Assembly: GCA_029582155.1 (NCBI GenBank)
Contig: CM055906.1
Coordinates: 14,823,291-14,887,290, forward strand
DNA length: 64,000 bases
Direction of reading: 5' to 3'
Origin: Panopea generosa
Taxonomy: Eukaryota; Mollusca; Bivalvia; Adapedonta; Hiatellidae
Every line of letters begins with the position of its first letter. Within the stretch, counting starts at the first letter, position 1. The position numbers and the translations under genes were made by a program. Below the pieces are notes generated by a model. It saw only the letters and a list, made by a program, of their open reading frames with translations. It did not search any database and had not been told where the DNA came from. Positions 6,201 to 40,530 of this stretch are shown one piece after another.

Positions 6201-9200
6201 GAGTTGTGAGACTGAAATAGAATTCTAGTTATAAAAATAGATATAACACCTGTACTACTTGACAACCTTCATCTTGTCATTGCTGCTCTTTCTGAGATCA
6301 TCCAAATTTACTAATATGCAACCAATTTAACAGATCAAATTGAAATCAAATTGAATTCACATGATTCATATAATACATTATATAGTAAATTCCACATATA
6401 ACAACTCTGGATATAATGGAATTCTGGATATAACAAACATTTTTTGGGGCCCCAGATTCTAATCCTTCTTTATTTAATATATAGTCCGGTTATAATAAAT
6501 CTTCAAATATAAAAAAAAAATGAACAGTAAAGTGCTTGTTAATAATGTACTTCAAATATGTTCTAATAAATCAATATTTTGTGTATACTCTAATCCATGG
6601 TTAAGGGTTGCACAGGTAACAGAATATTAATTGGAACAATCGGTCACCTATCATCAGGCAATTTTTGGCATATGAGTTCACATAATATTGGTTGCTAGGC
6701 AACGTAATTGTTTGGTTAATCAAGATCATTACAACTCACATAATGATAGGAAAAAGATCAATCAATATAAACAATGTAAATTTCCACTCATGAGGCTAGA
6801 ATAATCTTACACAAGATAACTGATGTTAATGAATTTTATTACTTTTGACTTAACCCTTTACTCCATAGATACGCGTTGTCCAGCACCAATTACAGAATAC
6901 CTTTACGAGCAATCTGAACACTTCCTGCACAGTTTTCCACTCTGTCAGTTAATATAAACATAATTCACCCATTGCTGATACGTGGTGAATTAATGCTTTC
7001 AATATAAGAGGTGTCTAAAGGCGTCTTTATGAAGTAAAGAATTAAGAATCTTACTCATTATGGAAATCGTTTTTTATTTGGAATAACTAACACCGGATAT
7101 AATTATGAACAAATTTGAGGAGTTAGTTAAAAACAGCATTTACTGTAGAAGGTTTTGCAATTTTAAGTTGGAAATTTATTTTGATCTAAACTGGATACAT
7201 AGACCAAATTAGGAAATTCTATTTTACTATACTGTTTCGGAATCTATTGATAGACATCCTTATCGCAATAAGGGCTGTGCAGTGAGTGTATTTAATCATG
7301 ATATATTGGCAAATATATAAAATACTTACTTATGTAAGGCCCCTCGTAGTTGGTGCAGACAACAGATGCGTAATGTCCACTTGGACATGTTTGATTTTGA
7401 GCACTGTGCTGACAGTCCATGAGTGAGGATTCACTACCTGTGCACTTTACCTCTGATAAGGTGAATGCTTTAGTCTGAGGGCCAAACGCAGAACAACATA
7501 ATGGTTTCCCGAAACTGTATCCACCAATTTCTTTGCAAACAACTTTTGCTGCATTGGCATCAAAGCCATCTGCACAAACAAGACCATAGCTTTCTCCAGA
7601 GTGGTAAAGTACAGCACCGTAATTGGATTGCAGACTCAGTGACACTACAATAGAAATAAAGTCATTACAAATAAGTGTTGTTATAGTGGAAAGACACTAT
7701 AATGTTTCCATAGACATGAATGTCCCTGTTCCTTACTTTGAAGATAATTTTGAGGCTGTGACATTTTATTTTCATTCTTATACAACTTTTACAAATATAA
7801 ACATATAAAATAGTTTCATAATTTTTAATGCAGAAACAGTATAACTTTACCATAAATGTTACAATATAATTTTACTATAAATGTAACAATATAACTTTAC
7901 CATAAGTGTAACAATATAACTTCACCACTAATGTAACACTATAGCTTTGCAATTAATGTAAAAATATAACTTTACAATTAAAGTAACAATATAAGTGTAC
8001 CATAAATGTAACAACACAACTTTACCATAAGTGTAACAATAAACACCAGCATCTCTGAAGTGATTGGCACATTGGAATGAATATTTCTGATAACCAAGGT
8101 TAGGACACTGGAAGATGGAAGACTCTGTGCCTTCACATTCCATGTCCGAGAAGGCTATCTTCACATCATTATCAGCTCTAGCTGTGAACGCATTTCTAAA
8201 AATCAAGAATTCTACATTATCAAGATATATGTTTTCATATTTGCCTTTGTCAGAGCAAGATGGACACTATGGGTGCTTAGATACATCCAAAATAATCAAC
8301 ATATGTTCAAGTACTTCAAAAACTGACAATTTTCAAACCAACATCTGTTTTAGCATTTATTGACTCAATCAAAGACTTTTTTTGTCAGTAGAACATCAAC
8401 TTAAACAATTATACTTGTCCCTTTTATCTGACATTGTTGTTTTACTTTTTAACTATCAATACACAAATAATGGATTATTATTCTGCCAAATAAGCAACTC
8501 TCACAATATCCAGTATACTCAGAGTTAAAATATGTTCAATCAAGGCATTCATGGTCAATAAGTTCATGGCATTCATGGTTAATCAATTCATGGCATTCAT
8601 GGTTAATCAATTCATGGCATTCATGGTTAATCAATTCATGGCATTCTTCTTGAATTAATCCATGGTGCTCATGTTTTATCAAATTCATGGTGCTCATGAT
8701 TAATCAATTCATGGTGTTCATTATAATTCAATTCATGTTGTTCATGTACAATCAATTCACAGTGCTCATGTGTGATCAATTCATGGTGCTCATGTATTGT
8801 CAATTCACTGCACTCATGTGTGATAAATTCATGGTGCTCATTTATTGTAAATTCATGGTGCTCATGTTTTGTCAATATATGGTGCTCATATTTAATCAAT
8901 TCATGGTGCTTATGTTTAATCAATTCATGGTGTTTATGTTTAATCAATTCATGGTATTCATGTTTAATCAATTCATGGAACTCATGTTATACAATTCAAG
9001 GTGTCCATGTTTAATTAATTCATGGTGTTTATGATTAATCATTTAAACAATTCACTGTGTTAATGTTTAATCAATTCATGGAACTCATGTTTTATCAATT
9101 CATGTTGTTCATGTTTAATCAATCGATGGTGTTCATGTTTACTCAATTTATGGTGTTCACGTTTAATAAATCAATGGTGCTCACATTTAATCAATTCATG

Positions 9201-21200: not shown

Positions 21201-24200
21201 TTCTTGTAAAGAAAAAAAATCTTTATGTTTGTACCAGTTGAACAGTGTTTTTCAGTGGTAAATAAAAATACTTCTTTATCAAAATCAGCTGAATGACAGT
21301 ATTGAAATATCAAAAATAAATCAGAAATTAAAATATGATAAAACTTTATTTACGTTGATCTGCCATTGAAACAGGTTTAAACGTAGTAAAATTGTTTTGT
21401 CTCAGAATGAGTCCAAATGACGTCAAGCAGTATTTATGTCCTGTGTATTTGTAGAATGGTTATTTCATTTCAAGTTTACCACTCCAATTTAAATATTGAT
21501 TTTGTCACATTTTGGTGGAGTTGACATATCAAACCATTTAGATTTTATTTATCAATGATAATGAAATGAATTTTATCCATTTCAATATTTTATTTTTTAA
21601 GATATATTCCCTAAAAAGGGACAAATGACATTATGTTGAAATAGAATTCTACTCATGTTTATGTATCAAACCAACCATTAAACTGAGGAACTTACAATCA
21701 CAAGTCAGAGGATTATCTAGATTATTAAACCGAGGAACTTACAATCACAAGTCAGAGGATTATCAAGATTATTAAACTGAGGAACTTACAAACACAAGTC
21801 GGAGGATTATCTAGATTATTAAACCGAGGAACTTACAATCACAAGTCAGAGGATTATCTAGATTATTAAACCGAGAACTTACAGTCACAAGTCAGAGGAT
21901 TATCTAGTTTATTAAACCGAGGAACTTACAATCACAAGTCAGAGGATTATCAAGATTATTAAACTGAGGAACTTACAAACACAAGTCGGAGGATTATCTA
22001 GATTATTAAACCGAGGAACTTACAATCACAAGTCAGAGGATTATCTAGATTATTAAACCGAGAACTTACAGTCACAAGTCAGAGGATTATCTAGTTTATT
22101 AAACCGAGGAACTTACAATCACAAGTCAGAGGATTATCTAGATTATTAAACCGAGGAACTTACAATAACAAGTCAGAGGATTATCTAGATTATTAAACTG
22201 AGGAACTTACAATAACAAGTCAGAGAATTATCTAGATTATTAAACCGAGGAACTTACAATAACAAGTCAGAGGATTATCTAGATTATTAAACTGAGGAAC
22301 TTACAATCACAAGTCAGAGAATTATCTAGATTATTAAACTGATTATAAACAAAGGAACTTACAGTCACAAGTCAGAGGATTATCTAGATTATTAAACTGA
22401 GGAACTTACAATCACAAGTCAGAGAATTATCTAGATTATTAAACTGAGGAACTTGCAATCACAAGTCAGGGGATAATCAAGGTTATTAAACCCAGGAACT
22501 TACAATCACAAGTCAGAGAATTATCTATATTATTAAACCAAGGAACTTACAGTCACAAGTCAGAGGATTATGTAGATTATTAAACTGAGGAACTTACAAT
22601 CACAAGTCAGAGAATTATCTATATTATTAAACCAAGGAACTTACAGTCACAAGTCAGAGGATTATGTAGATTATTAAACCAAGGAACTTACAATCACAAG
22701 TCAGATAATTATCTATATTATTAAACCAAGGAACTTACAATCACAAGTCAGATAATTATCTATATTATTAAACCAAGGAACTTACAGTCACAAGTCAGAG
22801 GATTATCTAGATTATTAAACCAAGGAACTTACAATCACAAGTCAGAGGATTATCTAGATTATTAAACCAAGGAACTTACAATCACAAGTCATAGGATTAT
22901 CTAGATTATTAAACCGAGGAACTTACAATCACAAGTCAGAGGATTATCTAGATTATTAAACCGAGGAACTTACAATCACAAGTCAGAGGATTATCTAGAT
23001 TATTAAACTGAGGAACTAACTGTCACAAGTCAGAGGATTATCTAGATTATTAAACCAAAGAACTTAGTCACAATTCAGAGGATTATCTAGATTATTTAAC
23101 TTAGGAACTTACAATCACAAGTCAGAGGATTATCTAGATTATTCAACCGAGGAACTTAGTCACATGTCAAAATTATCTAGATTATTAATTCAAGGAACTT
23201 ACAATCACAAGTCAGAGGATTATCTAGATTATTCAACCGAAGAACTTAGTCACATGTCAAAATTATCTAGATTATTAATCCAAGGAACTTGCAATCACAA
23301 GTCAGAGAATTATCTAGATTATTTAACTTAAGAACTTACATTCACAAGTCAGAGGATTATCTAGATTATTATACCAAAGAACTTCGTCACATGTCAGAGA
23401 ATTATCTAGATTATTAATCCAATCACAAGTCAGAGGATTATCTGCTGATTGTGTCTCATTTCTATTTGTCTCTTATCGCCGATTCTAATAGGAAAGTTGT
23501 CAGGGACAGAGATGGGTGTGCTCGATTATTGGTTGCAAGGTACAAAACTTAATTTAGAGTAAGTATTGTAAATATATAAATATTAGCTATATATAGCCAT
23601 TGGTTAAACTTCCAGGATCCAAGGAAAGAGTGGTTTTGTTAAACTGATTGTCTGATAGCCCTCCGTTGCATAAAAATAAAGCTAAATAATTATTCAAACC
23701 AACAATAGTGAACTGTATGAACACACAGTTAATACAAGTGTGACATTGTGATGTCATAGAATATTTTGGCATATATGATGCATGATTTTCACAGCGTTAT
23801 GTGATACAGAATCTTAAACTCATTCATGTTTGATATAAGGTTTATAAAACTTGTAAAGAATTAGTTCAATATTAAATTGGCAAATTGCTCCCTAAAATTA
23901 ACCTTCGATAATCTATAACTTATCAATCTTATATCAAAAAGAGTCTCAAGAAGTAAGATACTATCAAAATAAAAATCATTAGGTGTCCATATTTGACAAG
24001 TTTATTGTTAGAAGCAAGGACTAACATATAAAAGGATAGGAAACTTGCACTTGTCCTGACTAAATGTCGATAAATAGCACACGGAGAATTCAATATTTAA
24101 TTGGTAATTAATCATTCATAATACACAGACAACTGATTTCTTGTACATAAACTGTAAGTTGTATATAATCTTAGATGTTTAAACATGTTTCAATCATTTA

Positions 24201-27200: not shown

Positions 27201-30200
27201 CCCAACTCCTAGCTTGTTATTAAAAAACTTTAAAATATTAGTCAAATAAATAACGTTGTACCATATTTAGTCTTGGACAAACATAATGATTGTAACTTTA
27301 AAACTTTTAATCTGTTTGGAAAGTGAAATTATCAACATTAACTGGCCTTGAATAATCTTGTAGTGTCATGATCTTGAATTCGATCATCTGCCTTAACCCT
27401 TTACTCCATAGATACAAGTTTTCCCGCACCAATCACAGAATGCCATTGAAAACAGTGCAGGAAGAGTTCAGATTGCTCGAGCAACCTGAACACTTCCTGC
27501 ACTGTTTTCCACTCTGTCAGTTAATATAAACATATTCAAAAGCCTTCTATATTAGAGGTGTCCAAAGGCGTCTATGTTAGAGGTGTCTAAAGGCATCTAT
27601 ATGAAGTAAAGGGTTAATGCCATTGAAAATAGTGCAGGAAGAGTTCAGATTGCTTGAGCAACCTGAACACTTCCTGCACTGTTTTCCACTCTGTCAGTTA
27701 ATATAAACATATTCAAAAGCCTTCTATATTAGAGGTGTCCAAAGGCGTCTATGTTAGAGGTGTCTAAAGGCATCTATATGAAGTAAAGGGTTAAGTATCT
27801 ATTATTAACAACAACAAATCTGTGATAAGTCTGTAGATGTGTGTGTTTGCTTTGCACAAATAATTCCCAGTGATAATATAAAAAGGTCTGACCCATAGGT
27901 TGGTCACACTTACGTCCTTATTGTAGGGACTCAATATATTATTGATCAGGAGTTGTACATTACAGGGACATAATAATTTATATTAAAGTGTCCTCCATGG
28001 ACGAGTGATCAAATGTACTGTCATCCAATCGCCATTCACCTCTCAGAGTTGAGATTGGGTGTTCAAGCCCAGCTCAGTTCAAAAACAAGTTTACAAGAGA
28101 AAGTTTGCCAGTTTGGTCACTATAAATTAATAACTAGATTATCATCCAAATTTATTTTTTTTTTAAATTTTTTTATTATTTCATAATACATACATTTTAC
28201 AAATATATTTGATATAATACATACAGTTTAACATGAATGTATTCTATGAAATAATGTTATACTAAGAAGAGGTGTATTTGGATTAAATTCTTTATTTATT
28301 TCTATTACTTCTTTCATAGCTTGTTTAACTTTATCCTGATAATCGTTATCTAATATAACACTGTTTTTGAGATTAAAATATCCTGGCCCACATAGTTGTT
28401 TGTCAATAATAAGATTAAAATATACGAGAGAATGGTCCAAACAAAAACCTGTTGTAATTTTACAAACTGTTATTGCTTTTACTAAATTATTTGACACTAG
28501 AAAATAATCAAGTCTACAAAATATTGTTGGTTTGTTGTTTGAATGCCATGTATAGTGTTTAGTGCTTGGATTTAATATTCTCCATATGTCATTTATATCA
28601 TTATTTTGTATTATATTGTTTATTTTATTCCTGTTTTTTTTTTTATTATTATTAACATTGCCATGTATTTTATCTAACTCAACATTTATTACTATATTAA
28701 AGTCCCCTCCTACTATCATGGTTTCACTATCATTTAAATTTATGAAATCTTCAATTTTTGTAAGAAAGTTTAAATTATTGGTACATTGTAGATTTGTGTC
28801 ACCTGATATTTTGATTTATCATGAACATTCTGTGCACAGGGTAAATCAAATACCTTAAGAAATATATTATATAAAAAAAATTTAGTTTGCTAATTTTTAT
28901 TTTAAACCGAATGAATACTAACAGCCATGCAGATATCACATAGCATAATAATGTAAAAGGCAATGTGACACTAAAAATGCCATAAACATATCAAATAAAG
29001 TTTAAAATGAATATAAAGAATCTCATTATCATTAAATCTTACAAGTTCTAAAATATGAATGGTTGGGTAAATCAAATCCTGTAAAACGTCAACAACAAAA
29101 AATGTTCCACGTACATGTATTAAAGTGGTTAAATTGAAATATACACCCAGTTATATAAATATGCACAAACTGCTTGACGACCTTCATCTCATAATAAGAT
29201 GAACTTGATACAAAAGTATCTAACCAAAATGACGATTCCAATCAAACTGAAGTCATTTGTACTCATGTAATACTTCCCAAACTGCATTGCACTCCTAAGC
29301 AGGAATATTACTTTAGTCTTACCTTGGTGCACAGGCCATGATAGGAAACCTTTTTTTATAATATTATTTTGAATGTTTAAATGATGGATATCTTTATGGC
29401 ATTAAGGACTAAGTAAGTATATCTAGAAGACATTTTTTTTTATTCTTCCGTTACTTCCAGCAATCAAGTTCTGATTTTTATAGGAAGCCTCATTTCTGAG
29501 GAAGGTTTATTGGCATCACTGATTAACATAAAAGTTTAGTGAGATATTTTACATATGTGCACTGGGTATGACTCTAACGGTACCCAGACCAACTGCTTTA
29601 ATTCTCCTCCGAAGGATTGCATGCTTTCTCAGCACCGACGTATATATAAATGACGTTGACTTGTCATGGTAAAATGGCATTATTTTGAGACATTATGTCA
29701 ACAGATGGAAACTAATATGTCCGATTTAGTCTCGTTCCTCATAGAGGTGTTCTGTTGTATAAATGGTAAATTTACCATTTTCCTGAGTTATGTGATAAAA
29801 AGAATCTTACATTTGTGCACATTTATAATTGAATTTATTTTACTCTTTGGAAAAAAATATATAATTCTCTATAGACCCTTGCACAATATATTTTGCTAAC
29901 TCGTTAAATAAATTCAATAATAAATGTGCACTTGTGTAAGATCCTCCATATAACTTTTTTACCTTTGTGTTTATCCGTTACCAAAAATGTCACTTTACAA
30001 CTTTGTGAATTCTGTGCATAATTTTGTAAACTTTACAGTTGACATTTTTAACACATATTTAAAAGTTTTAAGTTTTCATTTGGCATTGTGGTCACATATA
30101 GTACAAAACAACACAACATGGATTGCTATTTTCTGTATGTTATGTAAAGCCATTTTTAACACATTTTAGGTTATATATGGAATATCCCGTTTTAGTGGTG

Positions 30201-33200
30201 GAGGAAAACCTCAGACTGAGTCAGACAGTTGAAAACCACCATCCTTCTGTTAGTAACTAGCAACCTTTCTCACATTAAGTTTTTGGAGCGAGTCAGACTT
30301 GAACCTACAACCTTAGTGATGAGAGGTTAGTGATTTTGACCATTCGGCCATGGAGGACTCCCAAAAAAACAGAAATAAACAGTCTACTGAAGCAACAACT
30401 ATGTCAGAATTTAAGGAAATTGGAAATCTCCAAGGTAGTCATACCGTCCTTTCAACCAATCAAAAACTTTATCTGTATCTTTATTCAAAGAACATTAACA
30501 TTTTTATCTGTGCCATTAAGAGTGCTTTGTACCCAGCATTGTATTTTGTAATTAAAGTTAAACCTCCAACTTAATATATACAAACCTGGTATTGCTGCCT
30601 CTACATTGTAACAGTTCACACTTGCATAAGTAAAATCTATCTGTGGGCAAACGGTTTCACCTTCAAAACTGCAGTCTGTCAGTTTAACCTCTTCACCTGT
30701 TGCACAACTCGACAATTTTTCTGGATATACAACACCATTAACAAGCTGTCCATATGCTGACAGAGGAAGCGCTGTTCCATTTTTGAACCCAAGCTGGGTG
30801 CAAGCAACATGGGCTTCTTTATCTGTGAAATCGTTGCCACATAGTGTGGCCCAGCCACTTGTTTCATGATAAAGCTGTACTATACCAGATGTGCTGGTTC
30901 CCCTATACAGCTGTATGTCACCTGAAACCATCAATAGTGAGAGTAATACAATTATTGTGAGTACCCCATACAGCAGACTGCTGTTTGCCACCTGAAACCA
31001 TTGATAGTGAAAAGTGTATAATTATTGTCTGGTCCTCCAATACAGTTGTGTGTCACCTGAAACCATCAGTAAAGAAAATTATACAATTATTGTCTGGTAC
31101 CCTATACAGCTGAATGTGACATTAAACCATCAACAGCTAGAAGGAATTAACAATCACTGCCTGGTTCCCTTGTACAGTTGTATTTCACCTGAAACCATCA
31201 ATAGCAAGAAAAATACAATTATTTTCTGGTACCCAATACAGCTGTTTGTCACCTGAAACTATCAATAGCAAGAAAAATACAATTTTTGGCTGTATGTCAC
31301 CTGAAACCACCAATTGCGAGAAATATACAGTTGTTGTCTGGTACCTCATACAGCTATATGTCATCTGAAACCATCAATAGTTATAGAATAACAATTATTG
31401 TCTGGTACCCCATACAACTGTATGTCACCTGAAACCATCAATAGTTAGAGTAATACAATTATTGTCTGGTACCCCATACAACTGTATGTCACCTGAAACC
31501 ATCAATAGTGAGAGTAATACAATAACTGGCTGGTACCCCATACAGTTGTTTGTCACCTGAAACCATCAATAGTGAGAGTAATACAATTATTGTGAGTACC
31601 CCATACAGCTGTTTGTCACCTGAAACCATCAATAGTTAGAGTAATACAATTATTGTCTGGTACCCCATACAACTGTATGTCACCTGAAACCATCAATAGT
31701 GAGAGTAATACAATTATTGTCTGGTACCCCATACAGCTGTATGTCATCTGAAACCATCAATAGTGAGAGTAATACAATTATTGTCTGGGACCCCCTACAA
31801 CTGTATGTCACCTGAAACCATCAATAGTGAGAGTAATATAATTATTGTCTGGTACCCCATACAGCTGTATGTCATCTGAAACCATCAATAGTGAGAGTAA
31901 TACAATTATTGTCTGGGACCCCCTACAACTGTATGTCACCTGAAACCATCAATAGTGAGAGTAATACAATAACTGGCTGGTACCCCATACAGCTGTTTGT
32001 CACCTGAAACCATCAATAGTTAGAGTAAAACAATTATTGTCTGGTACCCCATATAACTGTATGTCACCTGAAACCATCAATAGTGAGAGTAATACAATTA
32101 TTGTCTGGTACCCCATACAGCTGTATGTCATCTGAAACCATCAATAGTGAGAGTAATACAATTATTGTCTGGGACCCCCTACAACTGCATGTCACCTGAA
32201 ACCATCAATAGTGAGAGTAATACAATAACTGGCTGGTACCCCATACAGCTGTATGTCATCTAAAACCATCAATAGTTAGAGTAATACAATTATTGTCTGG
32301 TACCCCATACAACTGTATGTCACCTGAAACCATCAATAGTGAGAGTAATACAATTATTGTCTGGTACCCCATACAGCTGTTTGTCATCTGAAACCATCAA
32401 TAGTGAGAGTAATACAATTATTGTCTGGGACCCCATACAACTGTATGTCACCTGAAACCATCAAAAGTGAGAGTAATACAATAACTGGCTGGTACCCCAT
32501 ACAGCTGTATGTCACCTGAAACCATCAATAGTGAGAGTAATACAATCATTGTCTGGGACCCCATACAGCTGTATGTCATCTGAAACCATCAATGGCGAGA
32601 AGAAAACAATTATTGTCTGGAAGCCCATATAGCTGTTTGTAACCTGAAACCATCAATAGTGAGAAATATACAATAATAGTTTGGTACCCCATACAGCTGT
32701 ATGTCACTTGAAACCATAAATAGGGAGAAATATACAATAATAGTTTGGTACCCCATACAGCTGTACATCACCTGAAACCATCAATAATGAGAAGAATACA
32801 ATTATTGTTGGTACCCTATACAGCTACTTGTCACCTGAAACCATCAATATTGAGAGTAATACAATTATTGTCTGGTACCCAATACAGCTGTTTGTCACCT
32901 GAAACCATCAAAAGCAAGAAAAATTCAATTATTGTCTGGTACCTCATACAGCTGTTTGTCACCTGAAACCATTAAAAGTAAGAATTATACAATCATTGTC
33001 TGCCCCCTCACCCTTCACACACACACAGCTGTATGTCACCTGAAAACATCAATAATGAGAAATATACAACTATTGTCTGGTACCCCATACAGCTGTTTAA
33101 ATGTCACCTGAAACCATCAATAGTGTGACATATAAAAATATTGTCTGGTTTCCTATACAGCTGTTTGTCGCCTGAAACCATCAACAGTGAGAAACATACA

Positions 33201-34187
33201 ATCATTGACTGCCCCCTCCCCCTTCACACACACAGCTGTATGTCACCTTAAACCATCAATAGCGAAAAGAATACAATTATTGTTTGGTACCCCATACAGC
33301 TGTTTGTCACCTGAAACCATAAATATTGAGAAATATACAATCATTGACTGCCCCCTCCCCTTTCACACACACAGCTGTATGTCACCTGAAAACATCAATA
33401 GCGTGAAATATACAATCATTGTCTAATCCCTCTAAACAGCTGTTTGTCACCTGAAATCATCAATAGTGAGAAGTATACAATTATTGATGGTTTCTCATAC
33501 AGCTGTTTGTCACCTGAAATCATCAATAGTGAGAAGCATACAATTATTGCCTGGTTTCTCCATACAGCTGTGTCACCTGAAACCATCAATAGTGAGAAAT
33601 ATGCAATGATTGTCTACCATAGAAAAACCTTTTAAATATTTAAAAATATTTGTAAAATAGTGTTTTAAACCATTTTCACAGCATTACAGGTTATTAATGG
33701 CATTTGCAGTTATATTGATGGAGGAAACATTGTGTCAATCACCTGAAATTTATGGAAGTAGTTACCACCACAGCAACTGCAATCATGGTTAATACAGCAA
33801 TTTTATTATGTGCAACGACTCTACATTGAATTACAGGTGATTTTTAATTACCTGAGAACAATTGTAAACATTAAAAGGTATCTTATTATTAATTTGGGGG
33901 GTTTCATGGTTAAATACATATGTTAAAACACCTGAAGCATGATTTACCTACTTTACCTACATCAAATCTCATTTGCATTCAAATTTGAATCGACTATAAG
34001 TCATTGTATTTATTTGTGTCACTCACATCAACGCTTGTTATTGACAAATTTTTGCAAAGGTCGATACAGTATCAATCAATAGAAAAAAACTGAATAAATC
34101 AATAAACTTACCTGGGTCCTGGGCTGCAATACCTGCAAGCCATATCTGAATTAAGGCAGACACCCTCAATATCTGTATCATTAACAT
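113..34187 (-). CDS. Multi-SRCR-domain secreted/receptor protein, gene model (13 exons, 3' end outside window)
   Basis: Joined model: 34187-34112, 30921-30586, 24909-24598, 20123-19937, 18332-18157, 16775-16580, 16311-16172, 15682-15356, 12704-12536, 8195-8026, 7644-7330, 5117-4968, 259-113. Every junction is phase-compatible: phase 1 between domains; inside split domains phase 2 in D3, D4 and D6 and phase 1 in D8. The product starts with a hydrophobic signal peptide, followed by eight SRCR domains. Each keeps the six cysteines of group A SRCR domains at the expected spacing (about 27-29 residues from the second to the third); D7 has two extra. SRCR proteins are extracellular and commonly bind microbial or endogenous polyanions, as in DMBT1 or CD163-type receptors; ligand binding here is inference. 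No transmembrane segment or stop codon is seen, so the C-terminus lies left of base 1. All introns except one end GT-AG. RNA reads would be needed to confirm the joins. Confidence 0.85.
260..609. other. Intron, no recognisable feature
   Basis: About 350 bases of single-copy-looking intron between the D8 second-half exon and the 47-bp array. No ORF, RNA gene or repeat is recognised. Confidence 0.6.
610..1790. repeat. 47-bp minisatellite, about 25 copies
   Basis: Head-to-tail units of 47 bp; a typical copy begins GTGTAAGATCTTATCTACC and runs to CAAAGTGACT. Copies differ by a few substitutions, such as TACC/TGCC. It lies in the intron of the D8 domain. The plus-strand 12-mer TGTGTAAGATCT in each unit also occurs across the acceptor of the 113-259 exon (bases 251-262), so the array may have grown from that splice junction. 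Confidence 0.95.
1791..2242. other. AT-rich intron
   Basis: A-rich and T-rich runs only. An 83-codon minus-strand ORF here has low-complexity composition and no recognisable domain. Confidence 0.6.
2243..4242 (+). repeat. Dispersed repeat with internal ~300-bp modules
   Basis: Starts with ACAAGAGGCCCAAGAGGGCC. A terminal phrase, GCATAAGCACTTCTGGCC followed by TTTGGCCAG, occurs at about 3193-3230 and again at 4204-4236. In between, a module (ttttccctataa-type start, then a 'ttgactgaccggttgttgag'-like phrase) recurs several times with strong divergence. A related opening phrase recurs at about 60081. It looks like an old transposon-derived family with no coding capacity; class unknown. Confidence 0.6.
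4500..4690 (-). repeat. tRNA-derived SINE, family S2 (degraded)
   Basis: In reverse orientation it shares the 'aagtaactggcaa..tttctcacat' body with copies at 12305-12490 and 30190-30362. The tRNA-like head is at the right end (around 4590-4690). Confidence 0.55.
4968..5117 (-). CDS. SRCR domain 8, first-half exon
   Basis: Exon of 150 nt, phase 1 at both ends. Acceptor TTACAG|AT, donor CAAAG|GTAACA. It encodes a first SRCR half with GLVCSENFTHEDAKVVCKE, the usual VC...D/E-A-VVC spacing, and the first two cysteines. It is completed by the 259-113 exon. Confidence 0.85.
5261..5866 (-). mobile_element. MITE with internal 25-bp minisatellite and hairpin core
   Basis: Same family as 27393-27617, here in opposite orientation. 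The right end reads ATGGAGTAAAGGGTTAA; the left end, CCCTTAACTTTATATAGAT, is a decayed inverted copy. A 25-bp unit (TATAGACGCCTTTGGACAC plus 6 bp) is present only about twice in the 27.5-kb copies but about 17 times here (5274-5690). A 30-bp inverted repeat, GAAAACAGTGCAGG..., has arms at 5745-5774 and 5782-5811. No transposase is encoded. Confidence 0.8.
5871..6001 (-). repeat. tRNA-derived SINE, family S3
   Basis: On the minus strand a box A-like head (GTACTGTAATGGATAAAGTG) leads into AAACAACACTCCGTACTG and CTACCC(T)GGAAGC. The same order is seen at 45681-45860. The box B region is decayed. Confidence 0.65.
6002..6849. other. AT-rich intron with a decayed repeat
   Basis: No gene. Bases about 6395-6510 contain repeated 'ggatataa' phrases around a GGGGCCCC palindrome, resembling a decayed DNA transposon end. 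Nothing else is recognised. Confidence 0.5.
6850..7045 (+). mobile_element. MITE, partial copy of the hairpin family
   Basis: Begins TTAACCCTTTACTCCATAGA and ends TTTATGAAGTAAAGAATTAA. It keeps one arm of the hairpin (AGCAATCTGAACACTTCCTG) but has lost the other, and has only one copy of the GGTGTCTAAAGGCGTC motif. Confidence 0.75.
7330..7644 (-). CDS. SRCR domain 7, single-exon domain
   Basis: Exon of 315 nt, phase 1 at both ends. Acceptor ATTGTAG|TG, donor ATAA|GTAAGT. It holds an entire SRCR domain: SYGLVCADGFDANAAKVVCKE, then VKCTGSESSLMDCQ, and the terminal ASVVCTNYEG. It has eight cysteines, two of them an adjacent CC pair after GKPL, two more than the other domains. Confidence 0.9.
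7840..8025 (-). repeat. 25-30 bp tandem repeat carrying copies of the D6 splice donor
   Basis: About seven degenerate units directly beyond the D6 second-half exon. On the minus strand the unit is TTGTTACACTTATGGTAAAG followed by TTATA. It matches the end of the exon plus its donor (TTGTTACACTTATG|GTAAAG). The copy at 7893-7917 is nearly identical to the genuine boundary at 8020-8041. Confidence 0.85.
8026..8195 (-). CDS. SRCR domain 6, second-half exon
   Basis: Exon of 170 nt, phase 2 in and phase 1 out. Acceptor GATTTTTAG|A, donor CTTATG|GTAAAG. Encodes KIAFSDMECEGTESSIFQC, a further cysteine in the FQCANHF segment and GVYCY. Joined to 12704-12536 the split codon is TCA (Ser). A second acceptor at 8182-8183 (TTCACAG) would be phase 1 and would not match the upstream exon. 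Confidence 0.85.
8196..8539. other. Intron, no recognisable feature
   Basis: About 340 bases between the D6 exon and the 24-bp array; nothing recognised. Confidence 0.5.
8540..11076. repeat. 24-bp minisatellite, about 100 copies, with higher-order repeats
   Basis: The unit is about TTCATGGTGCTCATGTTTAA plus TCAA. The length is a multiple of three, so long open frames appear on both strands: octapeptide repeats around MFNQFMV on plus and HELIKHEH on minus. These are a by-product; there is no splice or coding logic. Larger segments are duplicated. The variant CATCTTTAATC at 9662 recurs at 10406 (744 bp, 31 units); ACGATAAATC at 9951 recurs at 10239 (288 bp, 12 units). It lies in the intron that splits D6. 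Confidence 0.95.
11100..11345 (-). mobile_element. MITE copy, inverted relative to 11957-12213
   Basis: About 245 bp whose sequence (TTGTGACATCTAGGAAGGCT, GCAGTATTTTTGCAAAATAT, CACTAAATGAATTTCC) matches the reverse complement of 11957-12213. It starts with a GGGGTCTGTTTTCAC end resembling that element's terminal repeat. It abuts the end of the 24-bp array. Confidence 0.7.
11346..11956. other. AT-rich intron with a SINE head fragment
   Basis: Mostly A/T runs and a C-rich patch (11733-11762). Bases 11820-11890 (CCACCATGGCCAAGAGGTTT, then GTGGGTGAGAGTCCAGC) look like the tRNA-like head of an S2 SINE. Confidence 0.5.
11957..12213 (+). mobile_element. MITE with ~50-bp degenerate terminal inverted repeats
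   Basis: The left end GGGGTCCATTTCACAATC is an inverted match to the right end (minus-strand read GGGACCCATTCCACTAATTT). Sub-terminal parts are also inverted-similar. Together with 11100-11345 it forms a roughly 200-bp imperfect inverted repeat about 0.6 kb apart. Non-coding. Confidence 0.7.
12305..12490 (-). repeat. tRNA-derived SINE, family S2
   Basis: On the minus strand the tRNA-like head (ATGGCCAAATGGCTTAAGGC) leads into the shared body TTGCCAAAAGATGG and CCTCCACCAATAAAACTG. Same layout as 30190-30362. Confidence 0.65.
12536..12704 (-). CDS. SRCR domain 6, first-half exon
   Basis: Exon of 169 nt, phase 1 in and phase 2 out. Acceptor TGTTTCAG|TA, donor GACTC|GTATGT. This is the most canonical SRCR start in the gene: VRLG, then GRAEVY, TGWATICNIGWSSYDAKVFC and RELGFADG. 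It is completed by 8195-8026, with an intron of about 4.3 kb containing the 24-bp array. Confidence 0.9.
12760..15060. repeat. 42-bp minisatellite with a 130-bp higher-order block
   Basis: Monomeric 42-bp units from about 13480 to 15055 (GATATCCCACCCACTGGAGT, then GGATGCTACAGACACATGAC and AT). Between about 12800 and 13480, three variant units (46+42+42 bp) form a higher-order repeat; its starts at 12931, 13061, 13191, 13319 and 13449 give offsets of 130, 130, 128 and 130. Units hold near-palindromes such as CCACTGCAGTGG. Open frames with a 14-residue period (HPLEWMLQTHDMI) are a consequence of unit length. Confidence 0.95.
15356..15682 (-). CDS. SRCR domain 5, single-exon domain
   Basis: Exon of 327 nt, phase 1 at both ends. 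Acceptor TCATTCAG|AT, donor CCACCAG|GTATTT. Encodes a full domain: GVAGTICRSGWDNKDAAVMC, FACTGTENSLNDC, and the final GALCYSTEPP. Six cysteines. The acceptor's pyrimidine tract is a short run of TTCA/TTTA repeats. Confidence 0.9.
15683..16048. other. Intron, no recognisable feature
   Basis: About 365 bases of intron; no repeat family recognised. Confidence 0.5.
16049..16073 (-). other. Possible 25-nt frameshifting micro-exon
   Basis: On the minus strand 25 nt are flanked by a good acceptor (TTTCTTCAG|ATTATC) and a strong donor (AATTCAG|GTAAGG). It would enter in phase 1 but leave in phase 2, so inclusion shifts the frame before D5. It may be a chance pair of splice signals or a poison exon. 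Confidence 0.25.
16172..16311 (-). CDS. SRCR domain 4, second-half exon
   Basis: Exon of 140 nt, phase 2 in and phase 1 out. Acceptor TTCCACAG|T, donor AGATG|GTGAGA. Encodes PPTRYVNRLLCQGTETSLQE, then CVLSTGRCKNHSRAAAVLCK. With the upstream exon the split codon is AGT (Ser). Short exon, easily missed. Confidence 0.8.
16580..16775 (-). CDS. SRCR domain 4, first-half exon
   Basis: Exon of 196 nt, phase 1 in and phase 2 out. Acceptor TTTACAG|TT, donor ATTAG|GTGATA. Encodes a divergent SRCR half: GQIRMKINDTLNGICADTF and AANIACQHDLGGFPVAEI. The usual WGTVC core is replaced by LNGIC. Confidence 0.8.
16776..17199. other. Intron, no recognisable feature
   Basis: About 420 bases of AT-rich intron ahead of the LINE fragment; nothing recognised. 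Confidence 0.5.
17200..18050 (-). mobile_element. Degraded LINE, reverse transcriptase C-terminal part
   Basis: Three overlapping broken frames on the minus strand read as one RT: SGVPQGTVLGPILFSLYIND (17847-18038), NCIKYLGVTTTSDVKWNIHI (17537-17779), and GLVRPVLEYASYVWDPHC with AAKFVTSDYKYEPGSMSNIL (17340-17576). These are the conserved blocks after the RT catalytic region of Jockey/CR1-like non-LTR elements. The catalytic YADD block falls in a deleted or shifted part. Dead copy inside the intron before D4. Confidence 0.85.
18157..18332 (-). CDS. SRCR domain 3, second-half exon
   Basis: Exon of 176 nt, phase 2 in and phase 1 out. Acceptor TCAAACAG|G, donor CCTCAG|GTATGG. Encodes VVLDMTCDNSDESVFGC, a further cysteine in NVSESCSN, and AAAVYCYSS. 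The distance between the second and third domain cysteines is about 38 residues, longer than in the other domains. Confidence 0.8.
18350..18401. repeat. (TGAA)n microsatellite
   Basis: About 13 uninterrupted GAAT/TGAA units, 18 bp upstream (gene sense) of the D3 second-half exon. On the minus strand it reads (TTCA)n and lies where the polypyrimidine tract and branch site should be. Confidence 0.95.
18570..18840 (+). repeat. tRNA-derived SINE, family S1
   Basis: Decayed head (AGGCCTGGTAGTGCATCTGA) and the family's body: TTATCAGTTACTTGTGAAAA, GTGTACTTGAGTATTGGTTA, and the tail TGTTAGCCATCGATGGCATA. The order matches 53734-54022. Confidence 0.7.
19080..19665 (+). repeat. Dispersed repeat with ~180-bp modules ('ccataactgtgcc' family)
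   Basis: Modules hold CCATAACTGTGCCAAAATAC, then GATGGTGAACACACATG, then GTGAAGTTTCATTC and AATGAGTGGTTGCATAGATA. They end in GACGACGCTGATGACGCCAA and a CATGGCAATAGCTCTCCTTG tail. Same family as 42260-43250. The class is unknown and nothing is coded. Confidence 0.75.
19937..20123 (-). CDS. SRCR domain 3, first-half exon (GC donor)
   Basis: Exon of 187 nt, phase 1 in and phase 2 out. Acceptor GTCTTCAG|CT, or 6 nt later GCTGCAG|AG in the same phase. Encodes GKVVISVDGVQGLFCQADQ and NAYVVCTTLGYIGGYG. The only frame-compatible end is GAAAAG|GCAAGG, a GC-AG intron donor, giving AGG (Arg) with the next exon. A GT donor 5 nt further (CAAG|GTGTTT) would break the frame. Confidence 0.7.
20406..20728 (+). 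mobile_element. MITE with TACAGTCAAACCTGT ends and internal duplication
   Basis: The left end is ATACAGTCAAACCTGTCTAA. Inverted right ends occur at about 20566-20583 (CACAGGTTTGACTCTATA) and 20711-20728 (CACAGGTTTGAGTGTATA). The inner ~147 bp (from AAAGCATGGCCTTTTAAGAC) is present twice in tandem. TA-flanked ends suggest mobilisation by a mariner/pogo-type transposase. Confidence 0.7.
20729..21684. other. AT-rich intron with a shared dispersed segment
   Basis: No gene. Bases about 20735-20935 (ATGGTAAAATGATGATATTT, then CAGAAACTAATATG) are diverged relatives of 29655-29835. The rest is featureless. Confidence 0.5.
21685..23450. repeat. 47-bp minisatellite, about 37 copies, one GTAAGT donor motif per unit
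   Basis: The unit includes GAGGAACTTACAATCACAAG, TCAGAGGATTATC and TAGATTATTAAAC. Four-unit blocks are duplicated near the left end (variant CAAACACAAGTCGGAGGATT recurs about 186 bp later). Units become irregular after about 23100. On the transcribed strand nearly every unit contains TGATTGTAAGTTCC. It lies in the intron between D2 and D3. It is unrelated in sequence to the 47-bp array at 610. Confidence 0.95.
23440..23710 (+). repeat. S1 SINE, 5'-truncated and interrupted
   Basis: Body phrases GTCTCTTATCGCCGATTC, GAGATGGGTGTGCTCGATTA, and tail GATTGTCTGATAGCCCTCCG. The tRNA head is lost. About 60 unrelated bases sit inside. Confidence 0.6.
23711..24597. other. AT-rich intron, no recognisable feature
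   Basis: No coding exon, RNA gene or known repeat is recognised. Confidence 0.5.
24598..24909 (-). CDS. SRCR domain 2, single-exon domain
   Basis: Exon of 312 nt, phase 1 at both ends. Acceptor ATTTTCAG|AT. The donor is AGCAAG|GTCAAG, or 6 nt later GTCAAG|GTTGTA (same phase, adding two residues). Encodes GMWGHVCTEFWDDSDANVTC, KQLGYAGGVASLAE, INCEGSMQALTEC and RVAGVVC. Six cysteines. A clear WGHVC...D.DANVTC core. Confidence 0.9.
25241..25476 (+). repeat. tRNA-derived SINE, family S1
   Basis: Head CCAGGCCCGATACGCTCAGT with decayed box B (GGTCGTGAATCAGAATTCCC); body AAATTATCAGTTAATTGTGG, GGTGTGCTCGAGTACTGGTT. The last ~60 bp are missing. Confidence 0.75.
25480..25662 (-). CDS. Orphan open frame, possible terminal exon or exon fossil
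   Basis: A 60-codon frame ending in a stop reads VGIEAFQLLGGQPEERVYED, then VLPGPEPEYWEGPYGNSKCG. The composition is polar, Pro/Glu/Gly-rich, with tyrosines in acidic context (VYEDV, PEYWEG), reminiscent of a receptor cytoplasmic tail. It is sense-oriented inside the D1-D2 intron. No good acceptor in the right phase was found, and it sits beside a SINE and direct repeats. I cannot assign a function. Confidence 0.25.
   Translation of the reverse strand: MTHLLHHKNKSNFVGIEAFQLLGGQPEERVYEDVLPGPEPEYWEGPYGNSKCGCLSKSLL
25663..25880. repeat. ~72-bp direct repeat, 3 copies
   Basis: Three near-identical copies of a unit containing TCATATTTTAACCTATTTAT and GATTATGAAACAAGT, ending in CGCTTGAGGTCTTCCCGGGT or a close variant. 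High identity suggests recent duplication. Confidence 0.9.
25881..27392. other. Long intron segment without a recognised gene
   Basis: AT-rich sequence with C-rich patches (26735-26760, 27158-27210). No SRCR exon or RNA gene was found on either strand. Confidence 0.5.
27393..27794 (+). mobile_element. Hairpin MITE with tandemly duplicated body
   Basis: The element at 27393-27617 starts TTAACCCTTTACTCCATAGA and ends ATATGAAGTAAAGGGTTAA, clean terminal inverted repeats with TTAA ends. The core is an inverted repeat (GAAAACAGTGCAGGAAGAG...CTTCCTGCACTGTTTTC). Two copies of the ~25-bp GGTGTCCAAAGGCGTC motif lie near the right end. The body from GCCATTGAAAA is duplicated at 27618-27794. Confidence 0.8.
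27990..28130 (+). repeat. tRNA-derived SINE, family S2
   Basis: Head GTCCTCCATGGACGAGTGAT, box B-like GGGTGTTCAAGCCCAGC, body AGAGAAAGTTTGCCAG. Truncated by about 28130, followed by the LINE. Confidence 0.6.
28150..28860 (-). mobile_element. LINE fragment, APE-type endonuclease domain
   Basis: Minus-strand frame (28228-28719) with GGDFNIVINVELDKIHG, DIWRILNPSTKHYTWHS, CRLDYFLVSNNL and LDHSLVYFNLI: the D-x-N, YTW, R-x-D and D-H-S blocks of the apurinic-type endonuclease of L1/Tx1-like elements. The upstream part (28720-28860) continues the same domain. The RT region is absent. An L1/Tx1 assignment is likely but not certain. Confidence 0.85.
28861..30189. other. Intron with a small inverted repeat
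   Basis: No gene. Bases 29655-29835 are related to 20735-20935. Bases 29805-29850 (AATCTTACATTTGTGCACAT) are an inverted match to 29900-29945, a possible foldback element. Confidence 0.5.
30190..30362 (-). repeat. tRNA-derived SINE, family S2 (best copy)
   Basis: On the minus strand GTCCTCCATGGCCGAATGGT (box A), TTGTAGGTTCAAGTCTGAC (box B), then TTAATGTGAGAAAGGTTGCT and a CCTCCACCACTAAAA end. The head resembles a class II (Leu/Ser-type) tRNA. Confidence 0.75.
30586..30921 (-). CDS. SRCR domain 1, single-exon domain
   Basis: Exon of 336 nt, phase 1 at both ends. Acceptor GGTTTCAG|GT, donor ATACCAG|GTTTGT. Encodes DIQLYRGTSTSGIVQLY, TSGWATLCGNDFTDKEAHVA, CTQLGFKNG, a later TDCSFEGETVC, and ASVNCYN; six cysteines. 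The open frame continues 5' into the last array unit with a hydrophobic stretch, but that begins with GTG in repeat DNA and is not the start. The real 5' exon is at 34187-34112. Confidence 0.9.
30910..33610 (-). repeat. 64-bp minisatellite made of copies of the D1 splice acceptor
   Basis: About 42 units; spacing measured between GTCACCTGAAACC landmarks is 64 bp (31424 to 31488). On the transcribed strand each unit reads ATTGATGGTTTCAG|GTGACA, TACAGCTGTATGGGGTACC, then an AATAATTGTATTACTC tract. So it has a 3' splice site, about 27 bases matching the first bases of the D1 exon, and the pyrimidine-containing intron end. Units are most regular at 31380-32560 and diverge towards 33600. Confidence 0.95.
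33611..34111. other. Intron 1 remainder
   Basis: About 500 bases between the acceptor-copy array and the first coding exon; no feature recognised. Confidence 0.5.
34112..34187 (-). CDS. First coding exon with signal peptide
   Basis: Short exon, 25 codons plus one base (phase 1 out), donor CCCAG|GTAAGT. The ATG at 34187-34185 has a purine at -3 (GATATG) and an in-frame TAA four codons upstream of it; a second ATG follows two codons later. The peptide is a typical signal sequence: short polar start with one Arg, hydrophobic core VSALIQIWLAGIAA, likely cleavage near AAQ/DP. The split codon with the D1 exon is GGT (Gly). Not readable as a long ORF, so easily missed. Confidence 0.75.
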
Positions 34188-39299: not shown

Positions 39300-40530
39300 A
39301 ATAAACTAAGTTTTTAATTAAAAAGATTAATGATTATTGTTTCTGATCAGATCATGTGAGAACTGATTAGCAATATTTTCATATATGTGGAGATAATCAT
39401 TTTGATCCAACGCCTTTTTCCAATCTTTTAATAATTTTAGGAGAGTTTTTTGACAGCACTGACCCTTTCTGAATGCATATAAATAATCATAAAAAATGTT
39501 ATCACAGTATTTTGCTAATTGCTCTGACAAAACATTTTCAAATAATTTTGAATGGATTAGAAGAATGCTTACTGGTCTATAGTTACTTTTGGACATTGCG
39601 TCATTTGTTTTGAAAAGTGTGATTACCTGTGCTTCCTTTAGTCTGTTTTGGAAAACTCCTTCCGATATGGAGTAATTTACTAATTCAGTGAGTGGTTTTA
39701 AAATTGAAGGTTTAAATAATTTATGAGTTTAACAGAACATTTATCAATTCCTGTGGCCTTTTTTATTTTAAATCTATCAAATAGTTTTGGTACAGTCTTT
39801 TCATCTGTTGGCTTGAAAGTAAAAGAATCTTTATCCAGTTATTTTTCATTTATTTTATTAATATTTGGATGATCATTTGGGTTAAAAACATAATCTTTAC
39901 CACTGTTATCTGCTACATTAACAAAAAATGTTGAATACCTCGACTACTTCTTCATTTTGTGAAATTATTCCTTGTATACCTAATACTGCGATATACCTAT
40001 TACCGCAAATGCCTGTAACAATATCCTAGAAATGCGCAATGCTCCAACTTCCGTTAGCGGCGGCATTTGTTTACATTTCGTACAGGCAACTGTTTATTAT
40101 TCAGCACACTTAAGTAACTTTATTACTGTTTATTATTGATGCCATTATTTACATGGTTGACAAAGTTTTAGACTTGCGGTAATAGGTATAACCAGTTTAT
40201 ATTATCATATTCACTTGGGTGGTTTTAGAGTTTTTAGATAAGTAGGGATTTATGGTATTCAAATAGTCAGTCGACTTACAGCCACAGATATTTGTGGAAG
40301 GTCATTCTTTTGTAATAAATTGCTTTTCTTAATTGTTTGTACATGTAAGGTAACTGGTTGCTTCTACTATATGTCTCTTTAGTAGGTATGTGTTTATAAA
40401 ATACCTTTCTTATATTTGTTTCAAATTTGTTATATATCACATTTATGTCTTGATCATATCTCAGTTCATCTTTACATATTTTAATGTCTGCAATATCATT
40501 ATTTAAATCATCTACATTCAATTTTTTAAA
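39300..40530 (-). mobile_element. Degraded LINE ORF2 fragment with a nested MITE
   Basis: The minus strand reads, from right to left: LRYDQDINVIYNKFETNIRK (40276-40521), then after the MITE KIKKATGIDKCSVK, GVFQNRLKEAQVITLFKTND, SNYRPVSILLIHSKLFENVL and YAFRKGQCCQKTLLKL. This is the linker plus the first RT blocks of a CR1/L2-like element. Frames are broken and the catalytic YADD is not reached. It ends near 39300. Confidence 0.85.
39992..40190. mobile_element. MITE with 17-bp perfect terminal inverted repeats
   Basis: TATACCTATTACCGCAA near 39994 and its exact reverse complement ending at 40190. About 200 bp, more GC-rich than the surroundings, inserted into the LINE fragment. TA at the borders suggests a TA target site. 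Confidence 0.85.

What the first reader, a model, noticed from the sequence alone, without database searches (positions are those of the whole stretch)
30910..33610. Tandem array built from copies of a gene's own 3' splice site
Seen: about 42 copies of a 64-bp unit, each with the D1 exon acceptor (GGTTTCAG|GTGACA), about 27 exon-like bases and the adjoining intron end, all in sense orientation immediately 5' of the real exon. Inference: the unit arose by tandem duplication across the exon-intron junction, leaving about 40 decoy acceptors in one intron. In the consensus unit, using an upstream acceptor reads straight into AGG TGA at the next junction, so every decoy would give a premature stop. 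That would make acceptor choice, and perhaps array length, a dosage control for a defence-type gene. I know of no described class of 'splice-junction minisatellite'.
Basis: partly seen in the sequence, partly recalled or inferred. Interest (0 to 1): 0.85.

Follow-up and report, generated by a model that had tools for sequence, protein, structure and literature searches.

The report
Minisatellite copying an exon's splice acceptor
In an animal gene for a scavenger-receptor-type protein, the junction where an intron meets an exon has been copied about 41 times in a row inside the intron; it looks like a large, probably tolerated example of a repeat type already described in lancelets as "mirages".

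Summary
On the minus strand, intron 1 of an SRCR gene ends in 41 tandem copies of its own 3' junction plus the real acceptor at 30921; spacing is 64 bp in 28 of 41 steps, range 48-77. Of 41 copies, 39 keep AG, and 10 match the real site over 20+3 nt. Polarity is probably exon to array.

"No described class" is wrong: lancelet "mirages" are minisatellite-like duplications of intron/exon boundaries, acceptor side included (PMC3087553). Human F7 intron 7 is a donor-side relative (PMC6627357).

All 41 decoys lead to a stop, but so do all 41 in 286 of 300 shuffled arrays. TTTCAG is the array's coldest window, but other arrays have cold windows too.

Two donor-side junction arrays turned up at other SRCR exons: window 8026 and C13:22514234-22516981. 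Exon edges have local copies less often (5 of 117) than random non-exon positions (251 of 1078), so a tolerated accident of a minisatellite-rich genome is likeliest. Dosage control is untested; no RNA was available.

The parts
34112..34187 (-). Exon 1 from ATG: signal-peptide-like start, donor CAG|GTAAGT
   Evidence: Open frame continuous with exon 2 in phase 1; signal peptide judged by eye; no RNA
30922..34111 (-). Intron 1
   Evidence: Bounded by CAG|GTAAGT and TTTCAG|GTGACA
30922..33613 (-). Junction minisatellite: 41 copies of the acceptor junction, spacing 48-77 bp, 64 bp in 28 of 41 steps
31338..32616 (-). Homogenised core, units 16-35; mean non-consensus 0.049, against 0.106 distal and 0.159 proximal
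30586..30921 (-). Exon 2: first SRCR domain; its first about 27 bases are the exon part of the repeat unit; donor CAG|GTTTGT
   Evidence: Pfam SRCR E 8.1e-11 over residues 9-103 of 111
7842..8038 (-). Second junction array of the window, donor side: exon end TGTTACACTTATG|GTAAAG (last exon base 8026, inferred) plus 7 copies every 25 bp, 6 of 7 with GT
   Evidence: TRF row 7835-8041

Best explanation
This is an acceptor-side junction minisatellite, a 'mirage' in the lancelet literature. A stretch of about 64 bp across the intron 1/exon 2 junction was duplicated in tandem into the intron and expanded by unequal exchange or slippage, which also homogenised its centre. The real junction stayed at the exon-side end, so the reading frame was not broken and the array was tolerated. 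Most likely the spliceosome still uses 30921 because only that acceptor is followed by a full exon with its own donor (exon definition). Decoy use, where it happens, gives frames with an early stop that would be removed by nonsense-mediated decay. Shown: anatomy, reading frames, similarity to the exon, and junction arrays at two other SRCR exons of this genome. Inferred: direction of copying (well supported), duplication mechanism, correct splicing in vivo, decay of mis-spliced RNA, lack of a function.
For: 41 copies plus the real site in one unbroken series. Unit/exon homology, and L005's exon start matches the exon at 16 of 23 aligned positions. The D1 start aligns with the protein starts of paralogues from residue 2. 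The array motif is absent from L005-L019. Exon-like tails in 9 of 40 units, all outside units 10-35. Divergent ends and homogenised centre. Junction arrays also at window 8026 and in L027/L050. Local copies at 5 of 117 exon edges against 99 of 356 and 152 of 722 random non-exon positions. Stops as expected from shuffles. Published precedent.
Against: TTTCAG is the least variable 6-column window (0.020 against a mean of 0.096, rank 1 of 64, tied), which a purely neutral array need not show. 39 of 41 copies keep AG. The real acceptor is the last of 42 and its own downstream donor is weak (1.5 bits with a recalled matrix), so correct choice by exon definition is not self-evident. Several of the 9 exon-like tails win by 0.5 or less. 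D1's exon starts 6 nt earlier than the paralogues' exons, which this account does not explain.
Confidence: 0.78

Rival explanations
1. Splicing rheostat: the 41 decoy acceptors compete with the real one; decoy products carry an early stop and are degraded, so array length sets how much SRCR protein is made.
For: 39 of 41 keep AG and 10 of 41 are identical over 20+3 nt; 41 of 41 give a stop; coldest window at TTTCAG.
Against: Stops are expected by chance. Cold windows occur in six other arrays of the window (minimum/mean 0.00-0.43). The donor hexamer of the L027 array is not cold (rank 24 of 46 and 7 of 48). In lancelets the authors report no sign of disturbed splicing.
Confidence: 0.1
2. Stepping stones: TTTCAG|GTGACA is acceptor and donor at once, so splicing into a decoy regenerates a donor and the intron is removed in steps (recursive splicing) or mistakes are corrected.
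For: 31 of 41 keep AGGT; CAG|GTGACA scores 2.7 bits as a donor, above the exon 2 donor at 1.5 (recalled matrix).
Against: GTGACA lacks the +5 G; 38 of 274 GT sites of the stretch score as high; the +1 G is A in 7 of 41 copies, so the donor half is not kept.
Confidence: 0.05
3. Reverse polarity: an existing minisatellite supplied the acceptor and the first bases of the exon (exonisation).
For: The unit and the exon start are alike, which does not by itself give a direction; D1's exon starts 6 nt earlier than the paralogues' exons.
Against: The copied exon part beyond GTGACA aligns with the exon starts of paralogues that lack the array; exon-like tails sit at the divergent ends of the array.
Confidence: 0.04

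Closest known systems
'Mirages' of lancelets (BflGb6 and BflGb9 globins, Adh3, PGBD5, troponin C)
   Same: Tandem repeats that span an intron/exon boundary; BflGb6 repeats the 3' end of an intron with the 5' part of exon 2; many units carry AG/GT signals; homogenised inside, not at the cluster boundary (PMC3087553 passages; PMC3902484 passage).
   Different: Published globin cases have units of 150-160 bp in 6 and 3 copies; here 41 copies of about 64 bp, in an SRCR gene of a genome that is probably not a lancelet's (1.47 Gb; lancelet size of about 0.5 Gb recalled).
Human coagulation factor VII intron 7, 37-bp repeats
   Different: Donor side, where only the most upstream donor is used; here the acceptor side, with the real site last. 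The L027 and window 8026 arrays are closer to F7.
Internal tandem repeats at exon-intron boundaries of human segmental duplications
   Same: Minisatellites at exon-intron boundaries that may lead to new introns (PMC2812944 passages).
   Different: Units of 30 bp repeated 4 times on average; no long series of decoy acceptors in the passages seen.

Membership tests
Mirage (junction minisatellite) | Tandem repeat unit spans an intron/exon boundary | tested here: met
Mirage (junction minisatellite) | Authentic exon junction lies at one end of the array | tested here: met
   30921 is the last of 42 sites and the only one that keeps the frame open
Mirage (junction minisatellite) | Many copies keep splice signals | tested here: met
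   AG in 39 of 41, AGGT in 31 of 41
Mirage (junction minisatellite) | Concerted evolution inside, divergent cluster ends | tested here: met
   non-consensus 0.049 core, 0.106 distal, 0.159 proximal
Mirage (junction minisatellite) | Length differs between haplotypes | not testable with these tools
   one assembly only
Mirage (junction minisatellite) | Regular mRNA splicing undisturbed | not testable with these tools
   no RNA data
Factor VII intron 7 type (donor side) | Repeated element is a donor, real site first | tested here: not met
   This array repeats an acceptor and the real one is last; the arrays of L027 and window 8026 do repeat donors
Recursive splice site (ratchet point) | Acceptor directly followed by a donor consensus | tested here: inconclusive
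   AGGT in 31 of 41; donor GTGACA scores 2.7 bits with a recalled matrix; no RNA

The most novel reading that the evidence does not exclude
The decoy acceptors are kept by selection and do work: they draw a share of transcripts into stop-containing products, so array length tunes the output of an SRCR receptor, and junction arrays on both exon edges (acceptor side here; donor side at window 8026 and in L027 with 55 decoy GTAAGT sites) are a recurrent, fast-changing dial in this receptor family.
Probability: 0.08. Interest if true: 0.8.

Novelty: new member of a known kind. Interest (0 to 1): 0.42.

Why it matters
It is a natural test of acceptor choice: 42 acceptor-like sites in one intron, 11 of them (the real one and 10 decoys) identical over 20+3 nt, with the real one last. 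If RNA shows that only 30921 is used, exon definition outweighs first-come choice here; if not, a receptor gene carries a length-variable splicing sink. Together with the donor-side arrays in the same family and genome, it suggests that mirages are not peculiar to lancelets and arise where minisatellites are dense.

Tried and rejected
Dispersed satellite or transposon origin: not supported; the search of the own genome with window 31000-33500 matched only this array (very common words are skipped). RNA hairpins hiding the decoys: four 131-nt stretches give z -1.22, -0.79, -0.31 and -0.02. Stops as a sign of design: rejected. Cold TTTCAG as proof of selection: not accepted. Protein search with the ORF that holds D1: 16 candidates, none at E <= 1e-5. 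The organism is therefore not named; a bivalve-like animal is a guess from genome size, repeat content and SRCR abundance.

Survey limits: of five exon edges scoring >= 22, two are not counted as junction arrays: L030, whose 38-bp array stops short of its acceptor, and a window exon whose match is a simple ATTC repeat (judged from the window printed). Edges are ends of HMM hits, so boundaries more than about 70 nt away were missed; one of the three arrays is the finding itself. In the flank test, 4 of the other 11 arrays also had matches above their shuffles (8891-8938, 15261-15301, 23423-23443, 55199-55225). I did not examine these one by one; none of those places was flagged in the edge survey. 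That test missed the 25-bp donor array at 8026, which one search found. The control dropped 12 overlapping or duplicate loci, but some overlap remains (for example L016 with the L027 array).

Literature: ten searches answered. In their listings, and in the passages I read of ten papers (PMC6627357, PMC3778950, PMC3087553, PMC2812944, PMC3902484, PMC3166910, PMC12783039, PMC3862624, PMC6905558 by 'find'; none read whole; that is nine), I saw no junction minisatellite described in molluscs or SRCR genes. The library lacks most subscription journals.

Never answered: surveys of other gene families (PF00084, PF00059), a marker family for the taxon (PF02323), and the distal intron DNA.

Full report
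OBSERVATION. The window lies in a 1.47-Gb, 39-contig genome (G000:C13:14823291-14887290). On the minus strand, exon 1 at 34187-34112 reads like a signal peptide and ends in a strong donor CAG|GTAAGT. Exon 2 (30921-30586) is one SRCR domain behind a phase-1 junction (Pfam SRCR 42.6 bits, E 8.1e-11; the best PDB matches are chains of 'Scavenger receptor cysteine-rich type 1 protein M130'). Of ten ORFs scanned, eight match SRCR at E <= 0.01, five of them over the curated cut-off; that the minus-strand SRCR exons form one gene is inferred. Between exons 1 and 2 the intron holds 41 copies of the junction in front of the real one, 42 acceptor-like sites in all; spacing is 64 nt in 28 of 41 steps, range 48-77. 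TRF reports the array under several periods.

ANATOMY. Each unit holds about 37 nt of intron end, with branch-point-like CTCAC or CTAAC (motif recalled), the hexamer TTTCAG, and about 27 nt of exon start. AG is kept in 39 of 41 copies and AGGT in 31 of 41; 10 of 41 decoys are identical to the real acceptor over 20 intronic and 3 exonic nt. The longest exact shared context is 59 nt, with decoy 31556. The core (units 16-35) is homogenised, most alike at an offset of four units (0.939). Mean non-consensus is 0.049 in the core, 0.106 in units 1-15 and 0.159 in units 36-41.

POLARITY. The copied exon part encodes DIQLYRGT, just before the Pfam-matched stretch (residues 9-103). The D1 protein finds 16 matches in the own genome, itself included. 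tblastn aligns D1 from residue 2 with L005 (38%), L006/L007 (35%) and L012/L013 (25%). In those loci the exon begins straight after a pyrimidine-rich AG, in the same phase, but 6 nt further in than in D1. The array motif TTTCAG[GA]TGACA is absent from L005-L019; TRF finds no such array in L005 or L006. L005's exon start matches the exon at 16 of 23 aligned positions, and the unit consensus less well (score 4.0 against 6.5). Of 40 units with a testable tail, 9 resemble the exon more than the core consensus, several by a narrow margin, and all 9 lie outside units 10-35. The exon most likely came first.

FRAME. All 41 decoys joined to exon 1 run into a stop, 36 of them within 71 nt. This is no sign of design: shuffled arrays give 41 of 41 in 286 of 300 trials with a mean of 34.0 within 71 nt, and 22 of 63 other start points in the unit give at least as many early stops.

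CONSTRAINT. TTTCAG is the least variable 6-column window (0.020, mean 0.096; rank 1 of 64, tied with TGGTTT). By part it ranks 2 (distal), 6 (core) and 3 (proximal) of 64. Six other minisatellites of the window also have cold windows (minimum/mean 0.00-0.43; here 0.21). With the place named beforehand this is roughly a 1-in-30 to 1-in-60 event, suggestive only. In the L027 array the donor GTAAGT ranks 24 of 46 and 7 of 48, so the effect is not repeated. The change of +1 G to A is present in 7 of 41 copies, so the donor half of the overlapping AG|GT is not kept.

RECURRENCE. PF00530 gives 157 matches in the genome, a lower bound. From the loci held and the window, 89 SRCR hits reduce to 60 distinct exons and 117 testable edges; five edges have a local same-strand copy scoring >= 22. 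Reading them gives three junction arrays. The first is the array in question. The second is the donor of a window exon ending at 8026 (TGTTACACTTATG|GTAAAG), with 7 copies every 25 bp, 6 of them with GT. The third is the donor of the L027 exon (GATT|GTAAGT), in 46- and 48-bp units over C13:22514234-22516981, with 56 GTAAGT including the real one; read-through meets a stop 17 nt past the donor. Exon ends in the last two are inferred from frame and homology. The other two edges are an array that stops short of its acceptor (L030) and a simple repeat.

CONTROL. Random non-exon 50-mers have a local copy in 99 of 356 cases in the window and 152 of 722 in the loci (17 low-complexity draws skipped, 12 loci dropped, some overlap left). 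Exon edges, with several windows tried per edge, reach 5 of 117. Junctions are hit less often than non-exon sequence at large. Tolerance of minisatellite births that leave the true junction at the array's end is enough to explain them.

KNOWN KINDS. [quoted passage not shown] 150-160 bp; 6 and 3 units in two haplotypes; 81-100% identity; homogenised inside, not at the boundary), BflGb9, and Adh3 (10-72 bp). The authors say that the Adh3 data and their RT-PCR suggest no interference with regular splicing (PMC3087553, passages). PGBD5 and troponin C are named as further cases (PMC3902484, one passage). The Adh3 paper (PMC117041) is not held. In human F7 intron 7 the donor lies in the first of several 37-bp repeats and only the most upstream donor is used (PMC6627357, passages); its source (PMC1557585) is not held. 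F7 repeat alleles H5-H7 have been tested for heart disease with inconsistent results (PMC3166910, passages). Human repeats at exon-intron boundaries are in PMC2812944 (passages). 'No described class' is therefore wrong, though this array has more copies than the globin cases seen and appears to lie outside lancelets.

MECHANISM. I commit to a tolerated accident plus exon definition (0.78). The real acceptor is last of 42, so neither local sequence nor first-come choice would single it out; the full exon and its donor at 30586 (1.5 bits with a recalled matrix) are what sets it apart. This step is inferred. The rheostat (0.1) and recursive (0.05) readings stay open for want of RNA.

LIMITS. Organism unnamed; no RNA, no second haplotype, no orthologue. 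The genome search was mostly busy, so only SRCR exons were surveyed.

Noticed in passing
L027:1781-3309 and L050:1-1582 (C13:22514234-22516981): Donor-side junction array behind an SRCR exon: 46- and 48-bp units, 56 GTAAGT in 2748 bp including the real donor.
   Followed up: partly
window 7842-8038, minus strand: Donor-side junction array: the real donor plus 7 copies every 25 bp, 6 of 7 with GT.
   Followed up: partly
window 54854-55037: 37-bp array holding GTAAGT-like motifs, directly upstream of a WD40 exon on the minus strand; by eye not a copy of that exon's junction.
   Followed up: partly
window, whole: Dense minisatellites: for example arrays at 612, 5273, 8536, 12775, 21677, 30901 and 55468 with units of 24-64 bp.
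   Followed up: partly
L030: A 38-bp array ends just short of the acceptor of an SRCR exon, and a 30-bp array of 44.5 copies (L030:1-1329) lies on the other side.
   Followed up: no
C13:19.74-19.81 Mb and C13:20.04-20.10 Mb: Paired SRCR matches with equal scores about 293 kb apart suggest a recent segmental duplication (or an assembly duplicate) of an SRCR cluster.
   Followed up: no
window 28228-28815, 17340-17794 and 39327-39728, minus strand: ORFs that look by eye like pieces of a LINE-type retroelement; not tested.
   Followed up: no
window 30915-30921: D1's exon starts 6 nt earlier (two codons, GD) than the matching exons of the paralogues L005-L007 and L012-L013, as if the acceptor had shifted in frame.
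   Followed up: no
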